Origin: Actinomycetes bacterium | GTDB taxonomy: Bacteria > Actinomycetota > Actinomycetes > S36-B12 > CAIYMF01 | DNA: 32,330 bases | Direction of reading: 5' to 3' | NCBI GenBank assembly: GCA_021784035.1 | Contig: JAJXTD010000008.1 | Span: forward strand, 1-32,330 | In this document: piece after piece, positions 86 to 25,700 of the stretch | Numbering within the stretch: the first letter of the stretch is position 1 | Layout: the number at the start of each line of letters is the position of its first letter | Program-made: the position numbers and the translations under genes | Notes under the pieces: model-generated | What the model was told of the DNA's origin: nothing | The model's database searches: none | Seen by the model: only the letters and a program-made list of their open reading frames with translations

Positions 86-1465
86 TCACCGGTCGACCCC
101 GCCCAGGACGGGGTCGATCGAGGCGATGGCGCCGACGACGTCGGCGACCTGGCCGCCCTCGCACATCGCCGCGGTGGCCTGCAGGTTGTTGAACGACGGG
201 TCGCGGAAGTGCACGCGGTAGGGGCGGGTGCCCCCGTCGCTGACGATGTGCACGCCCACCTCGCCGCGGGGCGCCTCGATAGCGGCGTAGACCTGGCCGG
301 CGGGGACGTGGAACCCCTCGGTGACCAGCTTGAAGTGGTGGATCAGCGCCTCCATCGACTCGCCCATGATGTGGCGGATGTGCTCGAGGGAGTTGCCCTG
401 GCCGTCGGCGCCGATGGACAGCTGCGCGGGCCAGGCGATCTTCTTGTCCGCGACCATCACCGGGCCGGGCTCGAGCATGTCGAGGGCCTGCTCGAGGATG
501 CGCATCGACTGGTTGATCTCCTCGAGGCGGATGAGGAACCGGCCGTAGACGTCGCAGGTGTCGGTGGTGGGCACGTCGAAGTCGAACTTCTCGTAGCCGA
601 AGTACGGCTGGGACTTGCGCAGGTCGTGCGGCAGGCCGGCCGAGCGCAGCACCGGGCCGGTGATGCCCAGGGCCATGCACCCGGCGAGGTCGAGGTAGCC
701 GATGCCCGAGGTGCGGTCCTTCCAGACGCCGTTGTCCACGAGCATCTGCGGCACGCCGTCGAGCTGCTTGGGCAGCTGGCGCAGCACCGCGCGGATCCGG
801 TCGGCGCCGCCCTCGGGCATGTCCTGCGCGACGCCCCCGGGGCGGATGTACGCGTGGTTCATCCGCAGGCCGGTGATCATCTCGAGCATGTCGAGCACGA
901 GCTCGCGGTCGCGGAAGCCGTTGGTCATCGCGGTGAGGGCGCCCATCTCCATGCCGCCCGTGGCCACGGCCACGAGGTGCGAGGAGATGCGGTTGAGCTC
1001 GAGGGTGATGATCCGCATGAGCTGGGCACGCGGCGGCACGTCGTCGACGATGCCGAGCAGCTTCTCGACGCCGAGGCAGTAGGCCGCCTCGTTCGCGATC
1101 GGCGCGAGGTAGTCCATCCGCGTGACGTAGGCGACGGCCTGCGTCCAGGTGCGGTACTCGAGGTTCTTCTCGATGCCGGTGTGCAGGTAGCCGATGCCGC
1201 AGCGGGCCTCCGTGACGGTCTCGCCCTGCAGCTCGAGGATGAGCCGGAGCACGCCGTGGGTCGACGGGTGCTGCGGGCCCATGTTGACGACGACGCGTTC
1301 CTTCTCCCCCTCCGGGGCCGCGAGCACGCTGTCCCAGTCGCCGCCGACGACGGTGTAGACGCGGCCCTCGGTGGTGTCGTAGGCGCCGGCGTACGCGTCG
1401 GCCGGTGACGGGCCGCCGGCCGGACCGCCCTCGTCGTAGTCGGCCTCGTAGGTGACCTCGTTCAT
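86..1465 (-). CDS. nuoD: NADH-quinone oxidoreductase subunit D (49-kDa)
   Basis: Quinone-site subunit of the peripheral arm of complex I. With NuoB it forms the pocket where electrons pass from cluster N2 to menaquinone at the cytoplasmic membrane face. The 459-residue product carries the family signature GPQHPSTHG at about residues 63-71, followed by the long 49-kDa domain. The first 55 residues are acidic and glycine-rich (EADYDEGG) and form an extension beyond the conserved core, so the protein is somewhat longer than usual. The ATG overlaps the nuoC stop as ATGA, indicating translational coupling. The stop at 86-88 is followed by a 69-nt spacer and the presumed nuoE start. Identification is secure. 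Confidence 0.97.
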
Positions 1466-2190
1466 GAGTACGACCTCCGCTCGTCGGGCGGCGGGATCGT
1501 CGCGCCCTTGTACTCGACCGGGACTCCGCCCAGCGGGTAGTCCTTGCGCTGCGGGTGCCCCGCCCAGTCGTCCGGCATGAGGATGCGGGTCAGACCGGGG
1601 TGTCCGTCGAAGACGATGCCGAACATGTCGAACGTCTCGCGCTCGTGCCAGTCGTCGGCCGGGTAGACCGAGACGATGCTCGGCACGTGCGGGTGCGCGT
1701 CGGGCGCCGAGACCTCCACGCGCACGCGGCGGTTGTGCGTGACCGACAGGAAGTGCCAGACGGCGTGCAGCTCGCGGCCGGCCTGGTGGGGGTAGTGGAC
1801 GCCGGAGACGCCGGTGCAGACCTCGAACCGCAGCGCCGGCTCGTCACGCAGGCGACGGACGAACGCGAGCAGGTGCTCCGCACGCACGTGGAACGTGATC
1901 TCGCCACGGTCGACGACGACCGCCTCGACCGCGACGTCCAGGGACAGGCCGTCCTCCTGCAGCGCGAGGTCGAGCTCGTCCGCGACCTCGTCGAACCACC
2001 CGCCGAACGGGCGGACCGACGGCGCGGGCAGCTCGATCGTGCGGACCAGGCCGCCGTAGCCGGACGTGTCGCCGGCGCCGGACACCCCGAACATGCCGGT
2101 GCGCACGTCGACGACGGGCAGGGTCGGGGCGCCGGCAGGGACGACGTCGAGAGCCGCGTCGGCGCCTGGGGTCTCGGGGGAGTCGCTCAC
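1462..2190 (-). CDS. nuoC: NADH-quinone oxidoreductase subunit C (30-kDa)
   Basis: Peripheral-arm subunit that braces NuoB and NuoD; it has no cofactor. The ORF-track frame is open far upstream, but a GTG at 2190 overlaps the nuoB stop as GTGA and gives a 242-residue protein of normal size, so I place the start there. The first 50 residues are low-complexity (Ala/Pro/Asp). The C-terminal half holds the 30-kDa signature: [12 protein letters not shown], then GHPGLTRIL and a [10 protein letters not shown]-type ending. Separate nuoC and nuoD genes, as here, contrast with the fused nuoCD of enterobacteria. Confidence 0.96.
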
Positions 2191-2741
2191 CGCAGCAGGC
2201 CCTTCATCGCCGAGGTCGGCTCCGCCACGAGGGCCGCCGCCTCGAGCTCGGTGATCTCGTTCTGGCGGTTGACGCCGAGCTTGGTCGCCTGGACCTGCTC
2301 GTGCAGCTTGAGGATCGCGTCGAGGAGCATCTCGGGGCGCGGCGGGCAGCCGGGGAGGTAGATGTCGACAGGCACGATGTGGTCGACACCCTGGACGATC
2401 GCGTAGTTGTTGAACATGCCGCCGCTCGACGCACAGACGCCCATGGCGAGCACCCACTTGGGCTCGGGCATCTGGTCGTAGATCTGGCGCAGCACCGGTG
2501 CCATCTTCTGGCTGAGCCGGCCGGCCACGATCATGAGGTCGGCCTGTCGCGGCGAGGGGCGGAAGACCTCCATGCCGAAGCGGGCGAGGTCGAAGCGGCC
2601 CGCGCCGGTCGACATCATCTCGATCGAGCAGCAGGCCAGCCCGAACGTCGCGGGCCACATCGAGTGCGACCGGGCGGCGCCCGCGAGCTTCTCGACGGTC
2701 GTCAGCAGCACGCCGCTGGGGAGGCTCTCCTCGAGTCCCAT
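2187..2741 (-). CDS. nuoB: NADH-quinone oxidoreductase subunit B (N2 cluster subunit)
   Basis: Binds the terminal [4Fe-4S] cluster N2, which passes electrons to quinone. The 184-residue protein shows all four expected cysteines: the tandem pair in [11 protein letters not shown] (about C37, C38), GVCASSGG (about C103) and [10 protein letters not shown] (about C132). Length is typical. ATG start at 2741, 57 nt after nuoA. The stop overlaps the nuoC GTG by four bases. Confidence 0.97.
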
Positions 2742-2798
2742 GGGTCTAGCCCTCCAGTCCGTCTACGGGTGGTCGCTGCGCGGCGTTCGTCCGTGGGC

Positions 2799-3161
2799 TC
2801 AGTCCCACTCCAGCCCACCCCGTCGCCAGACATAGCCGTAGACCACGAGCACGGTGACGATGAACAGCACCATCTCGACGAGACCGAACAGCCGCAGCTG
2901 GTCGAACGCGACCGCGAACGGGTAGAGGAACACGATCTCGATGTCGAACACGATGAACAGCATCGCCGTCAGGTAGTACTTGATCGGGAACCTGCCGCCG
3001 CCCATCGGCTGCGGGGTCGGCTCGATGCCGCACTCGTACGCGTCGAGCTTGGCCCGGTTGTAGCGACGGGGACCCAGGAACGTCGGCGCGGCGACCGAGA
3101 ACGCACCGAAGGCGGCCCCGAGGATGCCGAGGACCAGGATCGGCAGGTAGACCTGGCCCAT
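2799..3161 (-). CDS. nuoA: NADH-quinone oxidoreductase subunit A
   Basis: Small membrane subunit at the junction of the peripheral and membrane arms of complex I. The 120-residue sequence has three hydrophobic helices (about 5-27, 63-83, 88-112) and the conserved loop with YECGIEP, whose cysteine is the one known to change exposure between active and deactive enzyme states. FDIEIVFLYP in the second helix is diagnostic. A GAAGGGG-type ribosome binding site stands just before the ATG at 3161. First gene of the nuo operon in this window. Confidence 0.96.
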   Translation of the reverse strand: MGQVYLPILVLGILGAAFGAFSVAAPTFLGPRRYNRAKLDAYECGIEPTPQPMGGGRFPIKYYLTAMLFIVFDIEIVFLYPFAVAFDQLRLFGLVEMVLFIVTVLVVYGYVWRRGGLEWD

Positions 3162-3194
3162 GTCGGTGCCCCTTCCGTCGGTGAGACCGTCGCG

Positions 3195-3200
3195 ATCCTA
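3195..3200 (-). promoter_or_regulatory. nuoA: Possible -10 element for the nuo operon (TAGGAT)
   Basis: Reading toward nuoA, TAGGAT fits the TAnnnT pattern and would place a transcription start about 27 nt before the ATG, leaving room for the visible ribosome binding site. The sequence 17 nt upstream (CTACTT) is a poor -35, so this is tentative. A lone Rex-like half-site (TTCACGA on the minus strand) overlaps the spacer, but no second half is present. Confidence 0.35.
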
Positions 3201-3227
3201 GTCGTGCCGGACTCGTGAAGTAGTGGT

Positions 3228-3246
3228 GGCGGGTGGTGCTCCCGCC
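3228..3246 (-). terminator. GC hairpin after the menJ-like gene
   Basis: GGCGGG-TGGTGCT-CCCGCC forms a perfect 6-bp GC stem six bases beyond the stop codon of the reductase gene, between it and nuoA. There is no T-tract, as is common for actinobacterial hairpin terminators. It could separate transcription of the reductase from the nuo operon. Confidence 0.4.
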
Positions 3247-3251
3247 CCGGT

Positions 3252-4541
3252 TCAGGCAGCGGGCGCCACCTTCGCCAGGGCGTTGACGATCCGGTCGGTC
3301 CAGTCGCCGCCGCGCGGGTCCCGGAGGTTCGACAGGGTCGTCATGGTCAGCTTCATGAGCAGGGGCCGGGACAGGCCCTTCTGCGTGGCGAGCCGCATGA
3401 TCTCGGGGTTCCCGATGAGCTTCACGAAGACGCGGCCCATCGTGTAGTAGCCGCCGTACTCCTGCTTGAGCAGGCGCGGGTAGTCGGCGAGCGCCTTCTC
3501 CCGGGAGTCGGCCGTCGGGCGGCGCAGCGCCTGGGCCATGACGTCGGCGGCGAGCGCACCGGACTCCATCGCGTAGGCGATGCCCTCCCCGTTGAACGGG
3601 TTGACCATGCCGGCCGAGTCACCGACGAGCAGCAGGCCGTCGGCATAGTGCGGCTTGCGGTTGAACGCCATGGGCAGCGCCGCGCCCCGGATCGGCTCGA
3701 CCCGGGACTCCTCGGAGAACCCGTAGGAGGCGTCGGCCCGGTCGACCCAGCGCTGCATGAGCGCCTTGTAGTCGACCTTCCCGAAGGCCGGGCTCGAGTC
3801 GAGGATCCCGAGGCCGACGTTCACCGTGCCGTCGCCGAGGCCGAAGATCCAGCCGTAGCCGGGGAGAAGCTTGTCGCCGTCCCACAGCTCGAGGTGGCTC
3901 TCCAGCCACTCGTCGTGCGTGAAGGCCTCGCTGCGGTAGTAGGTGCGGACCGCGACGCCCATCGGGCGGTTCTCCAGCCGTTCGCGGCCGGCGGCGACGG
4001 ACAGCCGGCTGGAGTTGCCGTCGGCCGCGACCACGAGCGGGGCGCGGTAGGTGACCTCGCCGTGCTTCGTGCCGTCGGCGTCGGCGGTCCGCGCGGTGAC
4101 CCCGACGATCCGGCCGGAGCGCTCGTCGCGGACCGGGCCGGTCACGTTGGTGCGCTCGAGCAGCCGCGCGCCGGCCTTCTCGGCCTGGCGGGCGAGGATC
4201 TCGTCGAAGTCCTTGCGGGTGCGGGTGAGGCCGTAGTCGGGGAACGTGGCCAGGTCCGGCCAGCGCATCTCCAGCCGGTGGCCGCCGCCGATGATCCGCA
4301 GCCCGACGTTGCGGGCCCAGCCCGCCTCGGGGCCGGTGTCGATGCCCATCTCGACGAGCTGCTTCACCGCGCGCGGGGTGAGGCCGTCGCCGCAGACCTT
4401 CTCCCGCGGGAAGGCGGTCTTCTCCAGGACGAGGACGTCGAGCCCGCGCTGGGCGAGGTGGAAGGCAGTCGCGGACCCGGCAGGGCCGGCGCCGACGACG
4501 ATGACGTCGGCGTCGTACGCCGGTGGTGGTGTCGTGGTCAC
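3252..4541 (-). CDS. menJ: Geranylgeranyl reductase family FAD protein, probably menaquinone reductase
   Basis: FAD-dependent reductase that saturates isoprenoid double bonds. In mycobacteria the family member MenJ hydrogenates the beta-isoprene unit of menaquinone, and the surrounding men genes make that the likeliest role here. From the GTG at 4541 the product is 429 residues. It has the dinucleotide-binding motif VVGAGPAG (about 15-22), the family motif PREKVCGDGLTPRAV, and the second FAD motif LLVGDSAGMVNPFNGEGI. The ORF track starts at a GTG at 4598, which also has an AGGAG upstream. That codon lies inside a Rex-like palindrome and only a few bases after a candidate -10, so I prefer 4541, which has GAGGA ten bases upstream. 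Reduction of another prenyl lipid is possible. Confidence 0.85.
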   Translation of the reverse strand: MTTTPPPAYDADVIVVGAGPAGSATAFHLAQRGLDVLVLEKTAFPREKVCGDGLTPRAVKQLVEMGIDTGPEAGWARNVGLRIIGGGHRLEMRWPDLATFPDYGLTRTRKDFDEILARQAEKAGARLLERTNVTGPVRDERSGRIVGVTARTADADGTKHGEVTYRAPLVVAADGNSSRLSVAAGRERLENRPMGVAVRTYYRSEAFTHDEWLESHLELWDGDKLLPGYGWIFGLGDGTVNVGLGILDSSPAFGKVDYKALMQRWVDRADASYGFSEESRVEPIRGAALPMAFNRKPHYADGLLLVGDSAGMVNPFNGEGIAYAMESGALAADVMAQALRRPTADSREKALADYPRLLKQEYGGYYTMGRVFVKLIGNPEIMRLATQKGLSRPLLMKLTMTTLSNLRDPRGGDWTDRIVNALAKVAPAA

Positions 4542-4582
4542 GGCTGAAGGATCCTCGGGGTCCGGACGGCGCGCGCGTGCGC

Positions 4583-4600
4583 TTGTGAAAACCTTCACGA
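4583..4600. promoter_or_regulatory. Candidate Rex operator upstream of menJ
   Basis: TTGTGAAAACCTTCACGA matches the Rex operator consensus TTGTGAA-N4-TTCACAA at 13 of the 14 defined positions. It lies 41 bp upstream of the chosen menJ start and just after a -10-like TAGGGT on the same strand, where a bound repressor would block early elongation. A rex gene is encoded in the same window, with a similar site at its own promoter. The match is seen directly; binding is inferred. Confidence 0.65.
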
Positions 4601-4610
4601 AGGCGCTCCT

Positions 4611-4616
4611 ACCCTA
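4611..4616 (-). promoter_or_regulatory. Possible -10 element for menJ (TAGGGT)
   Basis: TAGGGT on the minus strand fits TAnnnT. Transcription starting about seven bases downstream would place the Rex-like palindrome at roughly +4 to +21. No good -35 is visible 16-18 nt upstream (GCCGGG region), so support comes mainly from geometry. Confidence 0.3.
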
Positions 4617-4670
4617 CCCCCGCTCCCGGGATGCCCGGCACCGGGTTGGCCCCGCTCCTGCCCCTCCCCT

Positions 4671-4706
4671 CCGGTCCGGCGCCGCCCCCGGACGCCGTCG
4701 GACCGG
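4671..4706. other. Long inverted repeat in the menJ-menF divergent region
   Basis: CCGGTCCG and CGGACCGG are perfect 8-bp inverted arms separated by 20 GC-rich bases, midway between the divergent menJ and menF starts. It could be an operator or simply a structured GC-rich spacer. Apart from this, the Rex-like site and the -10 candidates, I see nothing else in the 232-nt gap. Confidence 0.3.
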
Positions 4707-4761
4707 GGAGACGTTCGCCACGTCGGGCTCCCGTCGGGCTGCCGAGCCGACCACCTGCCCC

Positions 4762-4767
4762 TAGCCT
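4762..4767 (+). promoter_or_regulatory. -10 element positioned for a leaderless menF mRNA (TAGCCT)
   Basis: TAGCCT ends six bases before the menF GTG, so transcription would start at or next to the first base of the start codon. No Shine-Dalgarno sequence precedes the GTG, which agrees with leaderless translation, common in actinobacteria. No clear -35 is visible. Confidence 0.5.
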
Positions 4768-4773
4768 GGTCGG

Positions 4774-6081
4774 GTGTCCACCGCGCTCGTCGCCGCGCCC
4801 GCGCCTCCGGCGACGGTCCGGACGGTCGCCCTGCCCGAGCACCTGTCCCACCGGCCGCTGCTGTCGCTCCTGCCCCGTGGCGTCGCGTCGACGTCGTGGG
4901 TGAGCACCGACGAGGTCGGGGCGGACAGCGGTCTCGTGGGCTGGGGCGAGGCCACGCGCGCCGAGTTCGGTGGCGCGGAGCGCTTCTCCCGCGCCCAGCG
5001 CTGGTGGGCCCGCTACCTGGCCGACGCCGACGTCGTCGACGAGGTCGGCGTACCCGGCACGGGCCCGGTCGCGTTCGCGTCGTTCGCGTTCGACCCGACC
5101 CCGGGCAGGTCCGTCGCCGTCGTCCCCTCGGTCGTGGTCGGGCGCCGTGACGGCGTCACCTGGCTGACCGTCGTCGCCGGGAGCCCGCGCGAGGCCCGGC
5201 TCGCGGTCGAGGAGACGGTGGCCGCCCTCGGCCACCCGACGGCCGTCCCCGAGGCGCCCCGTGGCGTCGCCTACTCGGAGGGCTCGCTGCCGGTGACCGA
5301 CTGGCAGGCCGCCGTCCGCGAGGCCGTCCGGCGGATCGACGACGGCGAGCTGGACAAGGTGGTCCTCGCGCGCGACGTCGTGGTCACGACCGACGCACCT
5401 GTCGACACGCGCTACCTGCTCACCCACCTCGCCGCGCGGTACCCGTCGTGCTGGACGTTCTCCGTCGACGGGCTGCTCGGCGCGACGCCGGAGATGCTCG
5501 TGCGCCGGATCGGCGACACGGTCACCTCCCGCGTCCTCGCCGGCACCATGCGCCGCTCGTCGGACGCGTCGTCGGACGCCTCGCTGGCCTCGGCGCTGCT
5601 CGACTCGGCGAAGGACCACGCCGAGCACGAGTACGCCGTCCAGTCCGTCGCCCTGGCGCTGGCCGCCCACTGCACCGACCTCGACGTCCCGGCCACGCCG
5701 CGGCTGCTGCGCCTCGCCAACGTCCAGCACCTGGCCACCGACGTGTCCGGCGTACTCGCCGACGGCGCTCCGGTGCTCGCTCTCGCGGCGTCGCTGCACC
5801 CGACCGCGGCGGTGTGCGGCACCCCGACCGAGCGCGCCCTCGCGGTGATCCGCGAGCTCGAGGGCATGGACCGCGGCCGCTACGCCGGCCCGGTCGGCTG
5901 GGTCGACTCCCGCGGCGACGGCGAGTTCGGCATCGCCCTGCGCTGCGGGTCGGTCGAGGCCGAGGACCGGCTGCGGCTCTACGCCGGCTGCGGCCTCGTC
6001 TCCGGCTCGGACGCCGACGCCGAGCTCGCCGAGACGCAGGCCAAGCTCGTCGCGATGCGCGACGCCCTCGAGCCGGACTGA
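4774..6081 (+). CDS. menF: Isochorismate synthase (menaquinone type)
   Basis: Converts chorismate to isochorismate, the first committed step of menaquinone synthesis. The 435-residue product has a variable N-terminal half and a chorismate-binding C-terminal half. GELDKVVLARD holds the lysine (about K195) that acts as general base in MenF-type enzymes. Also present are GATPEML (236-242), the HPTAAVCGTP segment (about 342-351) and acidic residues in REL-EGMDRGRY that bind magnesium in the family. A short imperfect repeat (SSDASSDAS, about 262-270) sits in a loop. EntC/DhbC siderophore enzymes are similar, but the men neighbours favour MenF. The GTG start is supported by the -10 spacing and the lack of any better start. 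The gene converges on the metallopeptidase gene, with a hairpin repeat between them. Confidence 0.92.
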   Translation: MSTALVAAPAPPATVRTVALPEHLSHRPLLSLLPRGVASTSWVSTDEVGADSGLVGWGEATRAEFGGAERFSRAQRWWARYLADADVVDEVGVPGTGPVAFASFAFDPTPGRSVAVVPSVVVGRRDGVTWLTVVAGSPREARLAVEETVAALGHPTAVPEAPRGVAYSEGSLPVTDWQAAVREAVRRIDDGELDKVVLARDVVVTTDAPVDTRYLLTHLAARYPSCWTFSVDGLLGATPEMLVRRIGDTVTSRVLAGTMRRSSDASSDASLASALLDSAKDHAEHEYAVQSVALALAAHCTDLDVPATPRLLRLANVQHLATDVSGVLADGAPVLALAASLHPTAAVCGTPTERALAVIRELEGMDRGRYAGPVGWVDSRGDGEFGIALRCGSVEAEDRLRLYAGCGLVSGSDADAELAETQAKLVAMRDALEPD

Positions 6082-23570: not shown

Positions 23571-24928
23571 GAGAGACCCCCCAGGAGCTCGTCGTACGAC
23601 GGGTCCGACGGCAGCGCGTCGGCCGACGGAGCGGCGGACTCGTCCGCTGCGGAGAGCGCCTCGATCGCCGCAGGGTCGAGGTCGAAGAGGCGGTGCAGCG
23701 CGGTGGCGTAGCGGGCGCCGTCCGGGTCCGCCGCCAGCTCCTTCATCCGCACGGTCGGCGTGTGCAGCAGGGTCGACACGGCGCGGCGCAGCGAGCGCGC
23801 GAGCTCGGCCGCGGCGGTGTCGTCGAGCTCGGGCAGCCGCATGCGCAGCCGCTGCAGCTCGGCCTCGACGACGCGGTCGGCGCGGGCCCGCAGCGAGACG
23901 ACGATGGGCTCGACGCGCAGCGCCGCCATCGCGGCCAGGTGGGCCCGGACCTCGTCGGCGACGATCGACCGGGCCAGCTCGACGTCGCGCTCCGGCGCGT
24001 TGGCCTCGGGGACCTCGGCGAGCGACGCGAGGTCGATGCGGCGCACTCCGTCGAGGTCGGCGATCGATTCCTCGGTGTCGTGCGGCAGGGCCAGGTCGAC
24101 GACGACGAGCGGCGTGGTGGCACCCATCCGCGCCGCGACGACGTCGGCCTCGCTGAGGACGAGGCCGGTCGAGCCGGTGCAGGACACGACGACGTCGACG
24201 TCGGGCAGCACGTCGGCCAGCGTCGAGAGCTCGATCGCGGTGCCCCCGACCTGCGCGGCGAGCCGGGCTCCGTGCGCGAACGTGCGGTTCGCGACCACGA
24301 TGTCGGTGACGCCCGAGCGCTGCAGCTGCGTGGCGGCGAGCGAGCTCATCGCACCGGCGCCGACCACGAGGGCACGGACGCCGTCGAGCGTTCCGCCGAA
24401 GTCGGCGGCCGCGATGTGGAGCGCCACGCTGACGACCGATGCGCCGGCGCGGTCGATGCCGGTGTCCTGGTGGACTCGCTTGCCCACGCGCAGTGCGGCC
24501 TGTGCGAGGTCGTTGATGCTGCGCCCGGCCGTGGCCGTCTCCTGCGCCGACCGCAGCGCGCCCCGGACCTGGCCGATGATCTGCTGCTCGCCGACCACCA
24601 TCGAGTCGAGCCCGGACGCCACCTCGAACATGTGCTGGACCGCGCGGTCCTCGTAGCGCACGTACAGGTGAGGTGTCAGCTCGTCGCGCGGCACCCCGGT
24701 GGCCTTGGCGAGCGACTCGGTGACGTCGACGACACCGCCGTGGAACCTGCTCACCTCGGCGTAGATCTCGACCCGGTTGCACGTGGAGAGCACGAGCGAC
24801 TCGGCCACGTGCGGGGAGCCGAGCAGGTCGACCTGCAGCCGCTCCGCGGCGTCGTCGACGAGGGCGAGACGGTCGAGCAGCGCCACCGGTGCGGAGCGGT
24901 GGCTGATCCCCACCACGAGGAGCGTCAT
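23567..24928 (-). CDS. hemA: Glutamyl-tRNA reductase
   Basis: NADPH-dependent reduction of glutamyl-tRNA to glutamate-1-semialdehyde, the entry to C5-pathway heme synthesis. The 453 residues have the catalytic cysteine in LSTCNRVEIYA (C50), the substrate motif GLDSMVVGEQQIIGQV, a Rossmann GAGAMSSLAA and a C-terminal dimerisation helix. The acidic tail (about 420-453) is variable. ATG overlaps the rex stop as ATGA, coupling it to the redox repressor. Confidence 0.96.
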   Translation of the reverse strand: MTLLVVGISHRSAPVALLDRLALVDDAAERLQVDLLGSPHVAESLVLSTCNRVEIYAEVSRFHGGVVDVTESLAKATGVPRDELTPHLYVRYEDRAVQHMFEVASGLDSMVVGEQQIIGQVRGALRSAQETATAGRSINDLAQAALRVGKRVHQDTGIDRAGASVVSVALHIAAADFGGTLDGVRALVVGAGAMSSLAATQLQRSGVTDIVVANRTFAHGARLAAQVGGTAIELSTLADVLPDVDVVVSCTGSTGLVLSEADVVAARMGATTPLVVVDLALPHDTEESIADLDGVRRIDLASLAEVPEANAPERDVELARSIVADEVRAHLAAMAALRVEPIVVSLRARADRVVEAELQRLRMRLPELDDTAAAELARSLRRAVSTLLHTPTVRMKELAADPDGARYATALHRLFDLDPAAIEALSAADESAAPSADALPSDPSYDELLGGLS

Positions 24929-25620
24929 GCGCGCACCTCCGGGTGCTTGCGTTGCTCGTGGAAGGCGAGGATCTGCAGCTCCGTGGCGAGGTCGACCTTG
25001 CGGACGTCGACCCCGGCCGGGGTGGAGAGGACGGCGGGGGCGAAGTTCAGGATGCTCGTGACGCCGGCCGACACGAGCCGGTCGCAGACCGCCTGGGCGG
25101 CCGAGGCGGGGGTGGCGATGACTCCGATGCTGGCCTCGCCGTCGAGTACGACGGTCTCGAGCTCGACGAGCGGGCGCACCTCGATCAGCTCGCCGTCCCG
25201 TCCCGCCGGGATCCGCTCGCCGACGCGGAGCGGGTCGGCGTCGACGAGGCCGACGACGCGGAAGCCGCGCGAGGCGAAGCCGCCGTAGTTGGCCAGGGCG
25301 TGCCCGAGGTTGCCGACGCCGACGATGACCACGCGCCAGTCCTGGGTCAGGCCGAGCTCCCGGGCGATCTGGTAGACGAGGTACTCCGTGTCGTAGCCGA
25401 CGCCGCGGGTCCCGTAGGAGCCGAGGTGGGACAGGTCCTTGCGCAGCTTCGCGCTCGTGACGCCGCTCGCGGCCGCGAGCTCCTCGCTGGACACCGTCGC
25501 CACGCCCCGCTCGGCGAGGTGGCTCAGCACGCGGTGGTAGATGGGCAGCCGGGCCACGGTGGCCTCGGGGATGCCGCGCCGGGACACGTCGGACGGAGGT
25601 GACAGCGGCACGACCCTCAC
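24925..25620 (-). CDS. rex: Redox-sensing transcriptional repressor Rex
   Basis: Repressor that binds DNA when NADH/NAD+ is low and is released by NADH. The 231-residue protein has a winged-helix N-domain starting RRGIPEATVARLP (about 14-26) with TVSSEELAAASGV and SAKLRKDLSHLGSYG, then a Rossmann domain with VGVGNLGHALANYGG. The swapped C-terminal helix ends LATELQILAFHEQRK. The track starts 26 codons earlier at a GTG lying inside the Rex operator and upstream of the likely transcript. The GTG at 25620 has AGGGA seven bases upstream and yields a family-typical N-terminus. It heads the heme operon, as in Streptomyces coelicolor rex-hemACD. Confidence 0.96.
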   Translation of the reverse strand: MRVVPLSPPSDVSRRGIPEATVARLPIYHRVLSHLAERGVATVSSEELAAASGVTSAKLRKDLSHLGSYGTRGVGYDTEYLVYQIARELGLTQDWRVVIVGVGNLGHALANYGGFASRGFRVVGLVDADPLRVGERIPAGRDGELIEVRPLVELETVVLDGEASIGVIATPASAAQAVCDRLVSAGVTSILNFAPAVLSTPAGVDVRKVDLATELQILAFHEQRKHPEVRA

Positions 25621-25671
25621 CCCGGCTTCCCTGGCGCGCGGCACCGCGTGGATCGGATGCTCGGCTCCGTC

Positions 25672-25700
25672 AGGGTAGGTAGTTGTGAACGAACGCACAA
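25672..25700 (-). promoter_or_regulatory. Promoter of the rex-hem operon
   Basis: On the minus strand TTGTGC (25700-25695) and TACCCT (25677-25672) are 17 nt apart. This predicts a start near 25665 and a leader of about 45 nt before the rex GTG. The Rex-like palindrome covers the -35 and most of the spacer, the layout expected for autorepression. Confidence 0.55.
25683..25700. promoter_or_regulatory. Rex operator at the rex promoter
   Basis: TTGTGAACGAACGCACAA matches TTGTGAA-N4-TTCACAA at 12 of 14 positions, with one perfect half-site. It lies between the -35 and -10 of the rex promoter. Rex autoregulation through such a site is established in Streptomyces; here it is inferred from sequence. 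Confidence 0.75.

What the first reader, a model, noticed from the sequence alone, without database searches (positions are those of the whole stretch)
4583..4600. Near-consensus Rex operator upstream of a menaquinone-tail reductase
TTGTGAAAACCTTCACGA matches the Rex consensus at 13 of 14 positions, better than the site at the rex gene itself, and sits in the menJ control region with rex encoded 20 kb away. It would tie saturation of the menaquinone side chain to the NADH/NAD+ ratio. I know Rex control of nuo, cyd, ndh and heme genes, but not of a geranylgeranyl-reductase-type menaquinone gene.
Basis: partly seen in the sequence, partly recalled or inferred. Interest (0 to 1): 0.75.

Follow-up and report, generated by a model that had tools for sequence, protein, structure and literature searches.

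The report
Rex operator of a ggr-nuo operon
The site is a genuine, evolutionarily conserved binding site for the NADH-sensing repressor Rex, but it is the well-known switch of the complex I (nuo) operon, which in this bacterium happens to start with a geranylgeranyl-reductase gene, so the lipid-reductase link is real but probably a by-product of gene order.

Summary
The palindrome at 4583-4600 is real: 13 of 14 consensus positions, expected about 2e-5 times in the window, and the strongest such site in it. It lies just downstream of a conserved -10 element and upstream of a geranylgeranyl-reductase-family gene (ggr, 3252-4541, minus strand) that is followed on the same strand, after 90 bp, by nuoA-nuoD. 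Comparative genomics shows whose operator it is. Where ggr directly precedes nuoA, the Rex site lies before ggr only (33 of 42 loci; one has both, 8 neither). Where other DNA separates them (Streptomycetaceae/Actinospica, 26 of 26), the site lies before nuoA and not before ggr. In order relatives without this ggr it lies before nuoA in 24 of 30 rex+ and 0 of 10 rex- genomes, including same-genus members. Unlinked MenJ-like reductases of relatives carry no Rex site (0 of 27). So this is the nuo-operon Rex operator, a known target (footprinted in Streptomyces avermitilis), with ggr as first gene. The gene scores 239 bits against a MenJ cut-off of 700, so 'menJ' is unproven. Rex co-control of ggr is likely in this lineage, but the operator's conservation follows nuo. 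New member of a known kind.

The parts
4583..4600 (-). Rex operator (ROP), TCGTGAAGGTTTTCACAA in the ggr/nuo sense
   Evidence: 1 mismatch to TTGTGAANNNNTTCACAA; expected 2.5e-5 in the window; present at the head of ggr-nuo or nuo in 39 of 50 rex+ and 0 of 13 rex- order relatives
4611..4616 (-). predicted -10 element TAGGGT of promoter P1, ending 10 bp upstream of the ROP
   Evidence: TANNNT ends 7-17 bp upstream of the ROP in 35 of 35 ggr-headed loci
3252..4541 (-). ggr: geranylgeranyl-reductase-family FAD protein (429 aa, GTG start), first gene of the operon; the 'menJ' of the finding
   Evidence: TIGR02032 257 bits (cut-off 158.8); MenJ NF045655 238.7 bits (cut-off 700)
3195..3200 (-). predicted -10 element TAGGAT of a second, ROP-free promoter P2 just upstream of nuoA
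   Evidence: TAGGAT or a near form lies in the ggr-nuoA gap of most relatives shown; no ROP with at most 2 mismatches there
2799..3161 (-). nuoA
   Evidence: NF005922 200 bits, cut-off 155; 90 bp after ggr, no terminator-like site found
2187..2741 (-). nuoB
   Evidence: NF005012 249 bits, cut-off 116
1462..2190 (-). nuoC (approximate; the start lies within ORF 1462-2658)
   Evidence: ORF list; position between nuoB and nuoD, NuoC-like sequence by inspection, not scanned
86..1465 (-). nuoD; the window begins at the start of its contig, so the rest of nuo is not seen here
   Evidence: ORF, NuoD-like sequence by inspection; window is G000:C25:1-32330
24925..25698 (-). rex, followed by heme genes (hemA, hemC/D, hemB) on the same strand
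   Evidence: NF003992 353.7 bits, cut-off 226; heme genes by inspection of the ORFs
25683..25700 (-). Rex operator at rex itself, TTGTGCGTTCGTTCACAA
   Evidence: 2 mismatches; matches the known rex autoregulatory site type (PMC5355995)
4774..6081 (+). divergent isochorismate synthase gene (menF/entC type), with its own -10-like TAGCCT at 4762-4767; not thought to be the ROP target
   Evidence: TIGR00543 291 bits, cut-off 224.75; in other families the ROP stays by ggr/nuoA while menF is far away

Best explanation
4583-4600 is the Rex operator of the ggr-nuoABCD... operon. Rex, encoded 20 kb away with the heme genes, would bind the palindrome when NADH/NAD+ is low. The palindrome lies immediately downstream of the P1 -10 element, so Rex covers the transcription start and blocks P1. 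High NADH releases Rex, and P1 then transcribes ggr and reads through the 90-bp gap into nuo. A second promoter without a Rex site (P2), just before nuoA, would give a Rex-independent basal supply. The conserved object of control is complex I. ggr is co-regulated because it is the operon's first gene in this lineage. Shown here by sequence: site, promoter geometry, gene order, conservation, rex co-occurrence. Inferred: Rex binding, transcript extent, and the enzyme's substrate.
For: (1) The site is far beyond chance. (2) In 42 loci with ggr directly before nuoA, 33 have the ROP only before ggr, 1 before both, 8 none; in 26 with ggr and nuoA separated, all 26 have it only before nuoA (Fisher 8e-12, or 1e-5 after collapsing at 90% ggr identity). 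(3) In order relatives without this ggr, the ROP lies before nuoA in 24 of 30 rex+ and 0 of 10 rex- genomes; over all 63 relatives, 39 of 50 rex+ and 0 of 13 rex- (Fisher 2e-7). (4) Natural deletions: G023 (L147) keeps promoter and ROP followed by about 45 N-terminal and 27 C-terminal codons of ggr and then nuoA; G008 (L139) keeps ROP, leader and start-codon region but no ggr body. (5) MenJ-like reductases elsewhere in relatives have no ROP: 0 of 20 plus 0 of 7. (6) TANNNT upstream of the ROP in 35 of 35. (7) Rex is experimentally shown to bind and repress nuoA1-N1 in S. avermitilis at TTGTGACCTGCTTCACAT (PMC5355995), the sequence seen before nuoA in Streptomyces loci here. (8) The same genome has a ROP before whiB1/wblE, another known Rex target.
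Against: No binding or transcript data exist for this organism. P2 means nuo is not wholly dependent on P1. The nuoA-only placement with ggr present is one clade, so its 26 cases are about one evolutionary event. 11 of 50 rex+ relatives lack the site at the operon head.
Confidence: 0.86

Rival explanations
1. The operator exists to control the reductase itself, so that menaquinone side-chain saturation is set by NADH/NAD+; nuo downstream relies on its own promoter P2.
For: The site lies directly before ggr, and nuoA has a separate conserved -10-like element without a ROP. ggr adjacency to nuo is kept across many actinomycete families.
Against: The site stays with nuoA when ggr is lost or separated, never stays with ggr when nuoA moves away (0 of 26), and is absent from MenJ-like genes (0 of 27).
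Confidence: 0.1
2. The site serves the divergent isochorismate synthase gene (menF) and so menaquinone or siderophore supply.
For: The site lies in the shared menF-ggr intergenic region in close relatives.
Against: menF has its own -10-like TAGCCT immediately before its GTG, about 160 bp from the site. In other families menF is roughly 0.8-2 kb or more from the ROP or not in the locus, while the ROP keeps its place by ggr/nuoA.
Confidence: 0.03
3. The palindrome is a chance sequence or the site of another regulator.
For: CRP/FNR-family sites (TGTGANNNNNNTCACA) resemble Rex sites; no binding data exist for this organism.
Against: Expected 2.5e-5 per window; conserved in 39 of 50 rex+ and 0 of 13 rex- relatives, which ties it to Rex rather than to a CRP-type factor.
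Confidence: 0.02

Closest known systems
Rex operator of nuoA1-N1 in Streptomyces avermitilis (PMC5355995)
   Same: Same operator sequence type, same operon, same repressor family; Rex binding shown there by EMSA, ChIP and DNase I footprinting, repression by RT-qPCR
   Different: There the operator is directly before nuoA. Here the ggr gene lies between operator and nuoA
Rex autoregulatory site of rex-hem operons (Streptomyces)
   Same: rex-hem gene order and a ROP at rex are both present in this window
   Different: The rex site here has 2 mismatches, the ggr-nuo site 1
Mycobacterial MenJ (menaquinone beta-reductase, NF045655)
   Same: Same GG-reductase superfamily; likely FAD-dependent reduction of a polyprenyl chain
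   Different: Window protein 238.7 bits against a cut-off of 700. Most order relatives without this ggr carry a MenJ-like protein (complete copies 515-621 bits) unlinked to nuo; only 1 of 99 genomes has both
ggr-nuo neighbourhood of Actinomyces oris (PMC5478893)
   Same: ggr beside nuoA, with ubiE next to it; transposon insertions in ggr and nuo gave the same phenotype class
   Different: Rex is not mentioned there

Membership tests
Rex operator (ROP) | Palindrome TTGTGAANNNNTTCACAA within 1-3 mismatches | tested here: met
   1 mismatch
Rex operator (ROP) | Located in a promoter region of a respiratory or NADH-linked operon | tested here: met
   10 bp after a conserved -10 element, 41 bp before the ggr start, ggr-nuo operon
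Rex operator (ROP) | Genome encodes Rex, and the site co-occurs with rex in relatives | tested here: met
   rex at 24925-25698; 39 of 50 rex+ and 0 of 13 rex- relatives
Rex operator (ROP) | Rex binds and NADH releases it | not testable with these tools
   Needs protein; binding at the nuo operator and NADH release at the cydA1 promoter were shown in S. avermitilis (PMC5355995)
Rex-controlled nuo operon | Operator at the head of the transcription unit that includes nuoA-N | tested here: inconclusive
   Same strand, 90-bp gap, no terminator-like site; the operator follows nuoA across relatives; the transcript itself could not be tested
MenJ (NF045655 equivalog) | Score above the curated cut-off of 700 bits | tested here: not met
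   238.7 bits. No relative passes the cut-off either, but unlinked MenJ-like ones reach 515-621
Geranylgeranyl reductase family (TIGR02032) | Score above the subfamily cut-off of 158.8 bits | tested here: met
   257 bits; nearest solved structure by sequence 3oz2, digeranylgeranylglycerophospholipid reductase
Geranylgeranyl reductase family (TIGR02032) | Reduces the menaquinone side chain | not testable with these tools
   Suggested only by linkage to nuo/menF and near-exclusive distribution with MenJ-like genes

The most novel reading that the evidence does not exclude
In Nanopelagicales and several other actinomycete lineages, placing a non-MenJ menaquinone-chain reductase inside the Rex-controlled nuo operon makes the saturation state of menaquinone rise with NADH/NAD+ together with complex I, tuning the quinone to the dehydrogenase. 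Sister species that use an unlinked MenJ-like enzyme have no such coupling.
Probability: 0.25. Interest if true: 0.6.

Novelty: new member of a known kind. Interest (0 to 1): 0.36.

Why it matters
It extends the known Rex control of complex I to an uncultured actinobacterial lineage and shows by natural gene loss which gene the operator serves. It also identifies a second, nuo-linked clade of GG-reductases that nearly never co-occurs with MenJ-like enzymes and is under Rex by operon membership. That gives a testable, lineage-specific link between redox state and menaquinone saturation.

Tried and rejected
(a) menF as target: rejected on conservation of position. (b) MenJ identity: equivalog cut-off not met. 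(c) A ROP at unlinked MenJ-like genes, which would have supported selection for redox control of saturation: none found in 27. (d) Consensus sigma-70 and terminator scan of 2700-4850: nothing found; the scan does not fit actinobacterial promoters, so TANNNT spacing was used instead. (f) One adjacency script did not flip minus-strand loci; its table is superseded. (g) The comparative Rex paper (10.1128/JB.06412-11) is not held, so prior computational prediction of a ggr-nuo Rex unit cannot be excluded.

Full report
OBSERVATION. The 18-mer TTGTGAAAACCTTCACGA is at 4583-4600. It matches TTGTGAANNNNTTCACAA at 13 of 14 positions. The site overlapping the 5' end of the rex ORF (25683-25700) matches at 12 of 14, and nothing else in the window comes closer than 10 of 14. 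A first-order Markov model of this 74% G+C window gives an expectation of 2.5e-5 sites with at most one mismatch in the window and 0.0023 in the whole 3.0-Mb genome. The genome is an assembly of 271 contigs, 88.6% complete. The nearest named record is a Candidatus Nanopelagicales MAG (L057, 92% ggr identity).

ANATOMY. On the minus strand the site is preceded by TAGGGT (4611-4616), which ends 10 bp upstream, and followed after 41 bp by the GTG of a 429-residue FAD protein (3252-4541). That protein passes the GG-reductase subfamily model (257 bits, cut-off 158.8) but not the MenJ equivalog (238.7, cut-off 700). After a 90-bp gap without a terminator-like site come nuoA and nuoB, then nuoC and nuoD by inspection of the ORFs, all on the same strand to the contig end. 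The gap holds a second -10-like TAGGAT (3195-3200), conserved in most relatives shown, but no Rex site. A divergent isochorismate synthase gene starts at 4774 with its own -10-like element.

WHOSE OPERATOR. Of 103 loci with an orthologous ggr, nuoA follows within 400 bp in 42. Of these, 33 have a Rex site only before ggr, one (L040) has sites before both, and 8 have none. In 26 loci a longer stretch separates ggr from nuoA; all 26 have the Rex site before nuoA and none before ggr. In the other 35 the locus does not reach nuoA. The 26 are Streptomycetaceae and Actinospica, a single clade on the ggr tree, so they count as about one event. Their site is of the same type as, and often identical to, the S. 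avermitilis nuoA1 site that Rex protects in footprinting (PMC5355995).

INDEPENDENT GENE LOSSES. Many order relatives lack this ggr. In 40 of them the 500 bp before nuoA were read: a Rex site with at most 2 mismatches is present in 24 of 30 with rex and 0 of 10 without. Same-genus genomes G004, G007, G008 and G009 have the site 114-360 bp before nuoA and no ggr there. G008 keeps the leader up to the old start codon, and G023 keeps the two ends of a decayed ggr between operator and nuoA. The operator therefore persists when ggr is gone. Over all 63 relatives examined, the site is at the operon head in 39 of 50 rex+ and 0 of 13 rex- genomes; this ties it to Rex. These are related genomes, so the Fisher values are descriptive, not independent-sample probabilities.

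THE REDUCTASE. Across 99 relatives, 23 have the nuo-linked ggr, 66 a MenJ-like protein, and only one both (expected 15 under independence; beyond the first 40 genomes the MenJ-like class rests on identity to the window ggr of about 40% or less, not on the MenJ model). The two look like alternatives for one job, probably polyprenyl-chain saturation of menaquinone; this is an inference. If redox control of saturation were itself selected, the MenJ-like genes might carry Rex sites too. None of 27 does.

MECHANISM. All 35 ggr-headed operators have a TANNNT ending 7-17 bp upstream, so Rex would sit at and just after the transcription start and block P1 until NADH releases it. Read-through into nuo is inferred from gene order and the loss cases. 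P2 would give Rex-independent nuo expression.

COMPARISON AND NOVELTY. Rex control of nuo is established in Streptomyces (PMC5355995; PMC8981147). ggr next to nuoA is on record for Actinomyces oris (PMC5478893). I found no held paper that joins ggr and Rex, but key subscription papers are not held. I file this as a new member of a known kind: a Rex-controlled nuo operon whose first gene is ggr.

CONTEXT. Elsewhere in the same genome, Rex sites lie before whiB1/wblE, also a known Rex target, and before serA. The serA site is conserved in 17 of 30 relatives' loci. An earlier count said 18; 17 is the recount.

Noticed in passing
L179 (G000:C109:2822-2839); L183-L212: serA (3-phosphoglycerate dehydrogenase) has a 1-mismatch Rex site 46-95 bp before its start, conserved in 17 of 30 relatives' loci and in 0 of 5 rex- ones. 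Rex control of serA was not found in the held papers and may be the more novel Rex target here.
   Followed up: partly
G000-G098: Nuo-linked ggr and MenJ-like reductases are nearly mutually exclusive across 99 relatives (1 with both, 15 expected), even within one genus, which suggests non-orthologous replacement.
   Followed up: partly
L178 (G000:C88:5054-5071): A 2-mismatch Rex site (TTGTGAACGCCGTCACGA) lies before a whiB1/wblE gene next to a histidine kinase gene; wblE is a known Rex target in S. avermitilis.
   Followed up: yes
L177 (G000:C212:1842-1859): A 2-mismatch Rex-like site (TCGTGAAACCGTTCACGA) lies about 430 bp before a periplasmic-binding-protein gene (Peripla_BP_6).
   Followed up: no
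window 3195-3200 and ggr-nuoA gaps of relatives: A conserved TAGGAT -10-like element without a Rex site lies just before nuoA, a likely second nuo promoter.
   Followed up: partly
L073, L080, L085, L094, L119 upstream of nuoA: Streptomycetaceae nuo promoters carry repeated AGATCACA motifs upstream of the -10 and Rex site, perhaps the site of another regulator.
   Followed up: no
L041-L044, L048 (genus g21, 1.0-1.3 Mb genomes): These small genomes have rex and ggr-nuo but no Rex site at the operon head, so nuo appears to have left the Rex regulon there.
   Followed up: no
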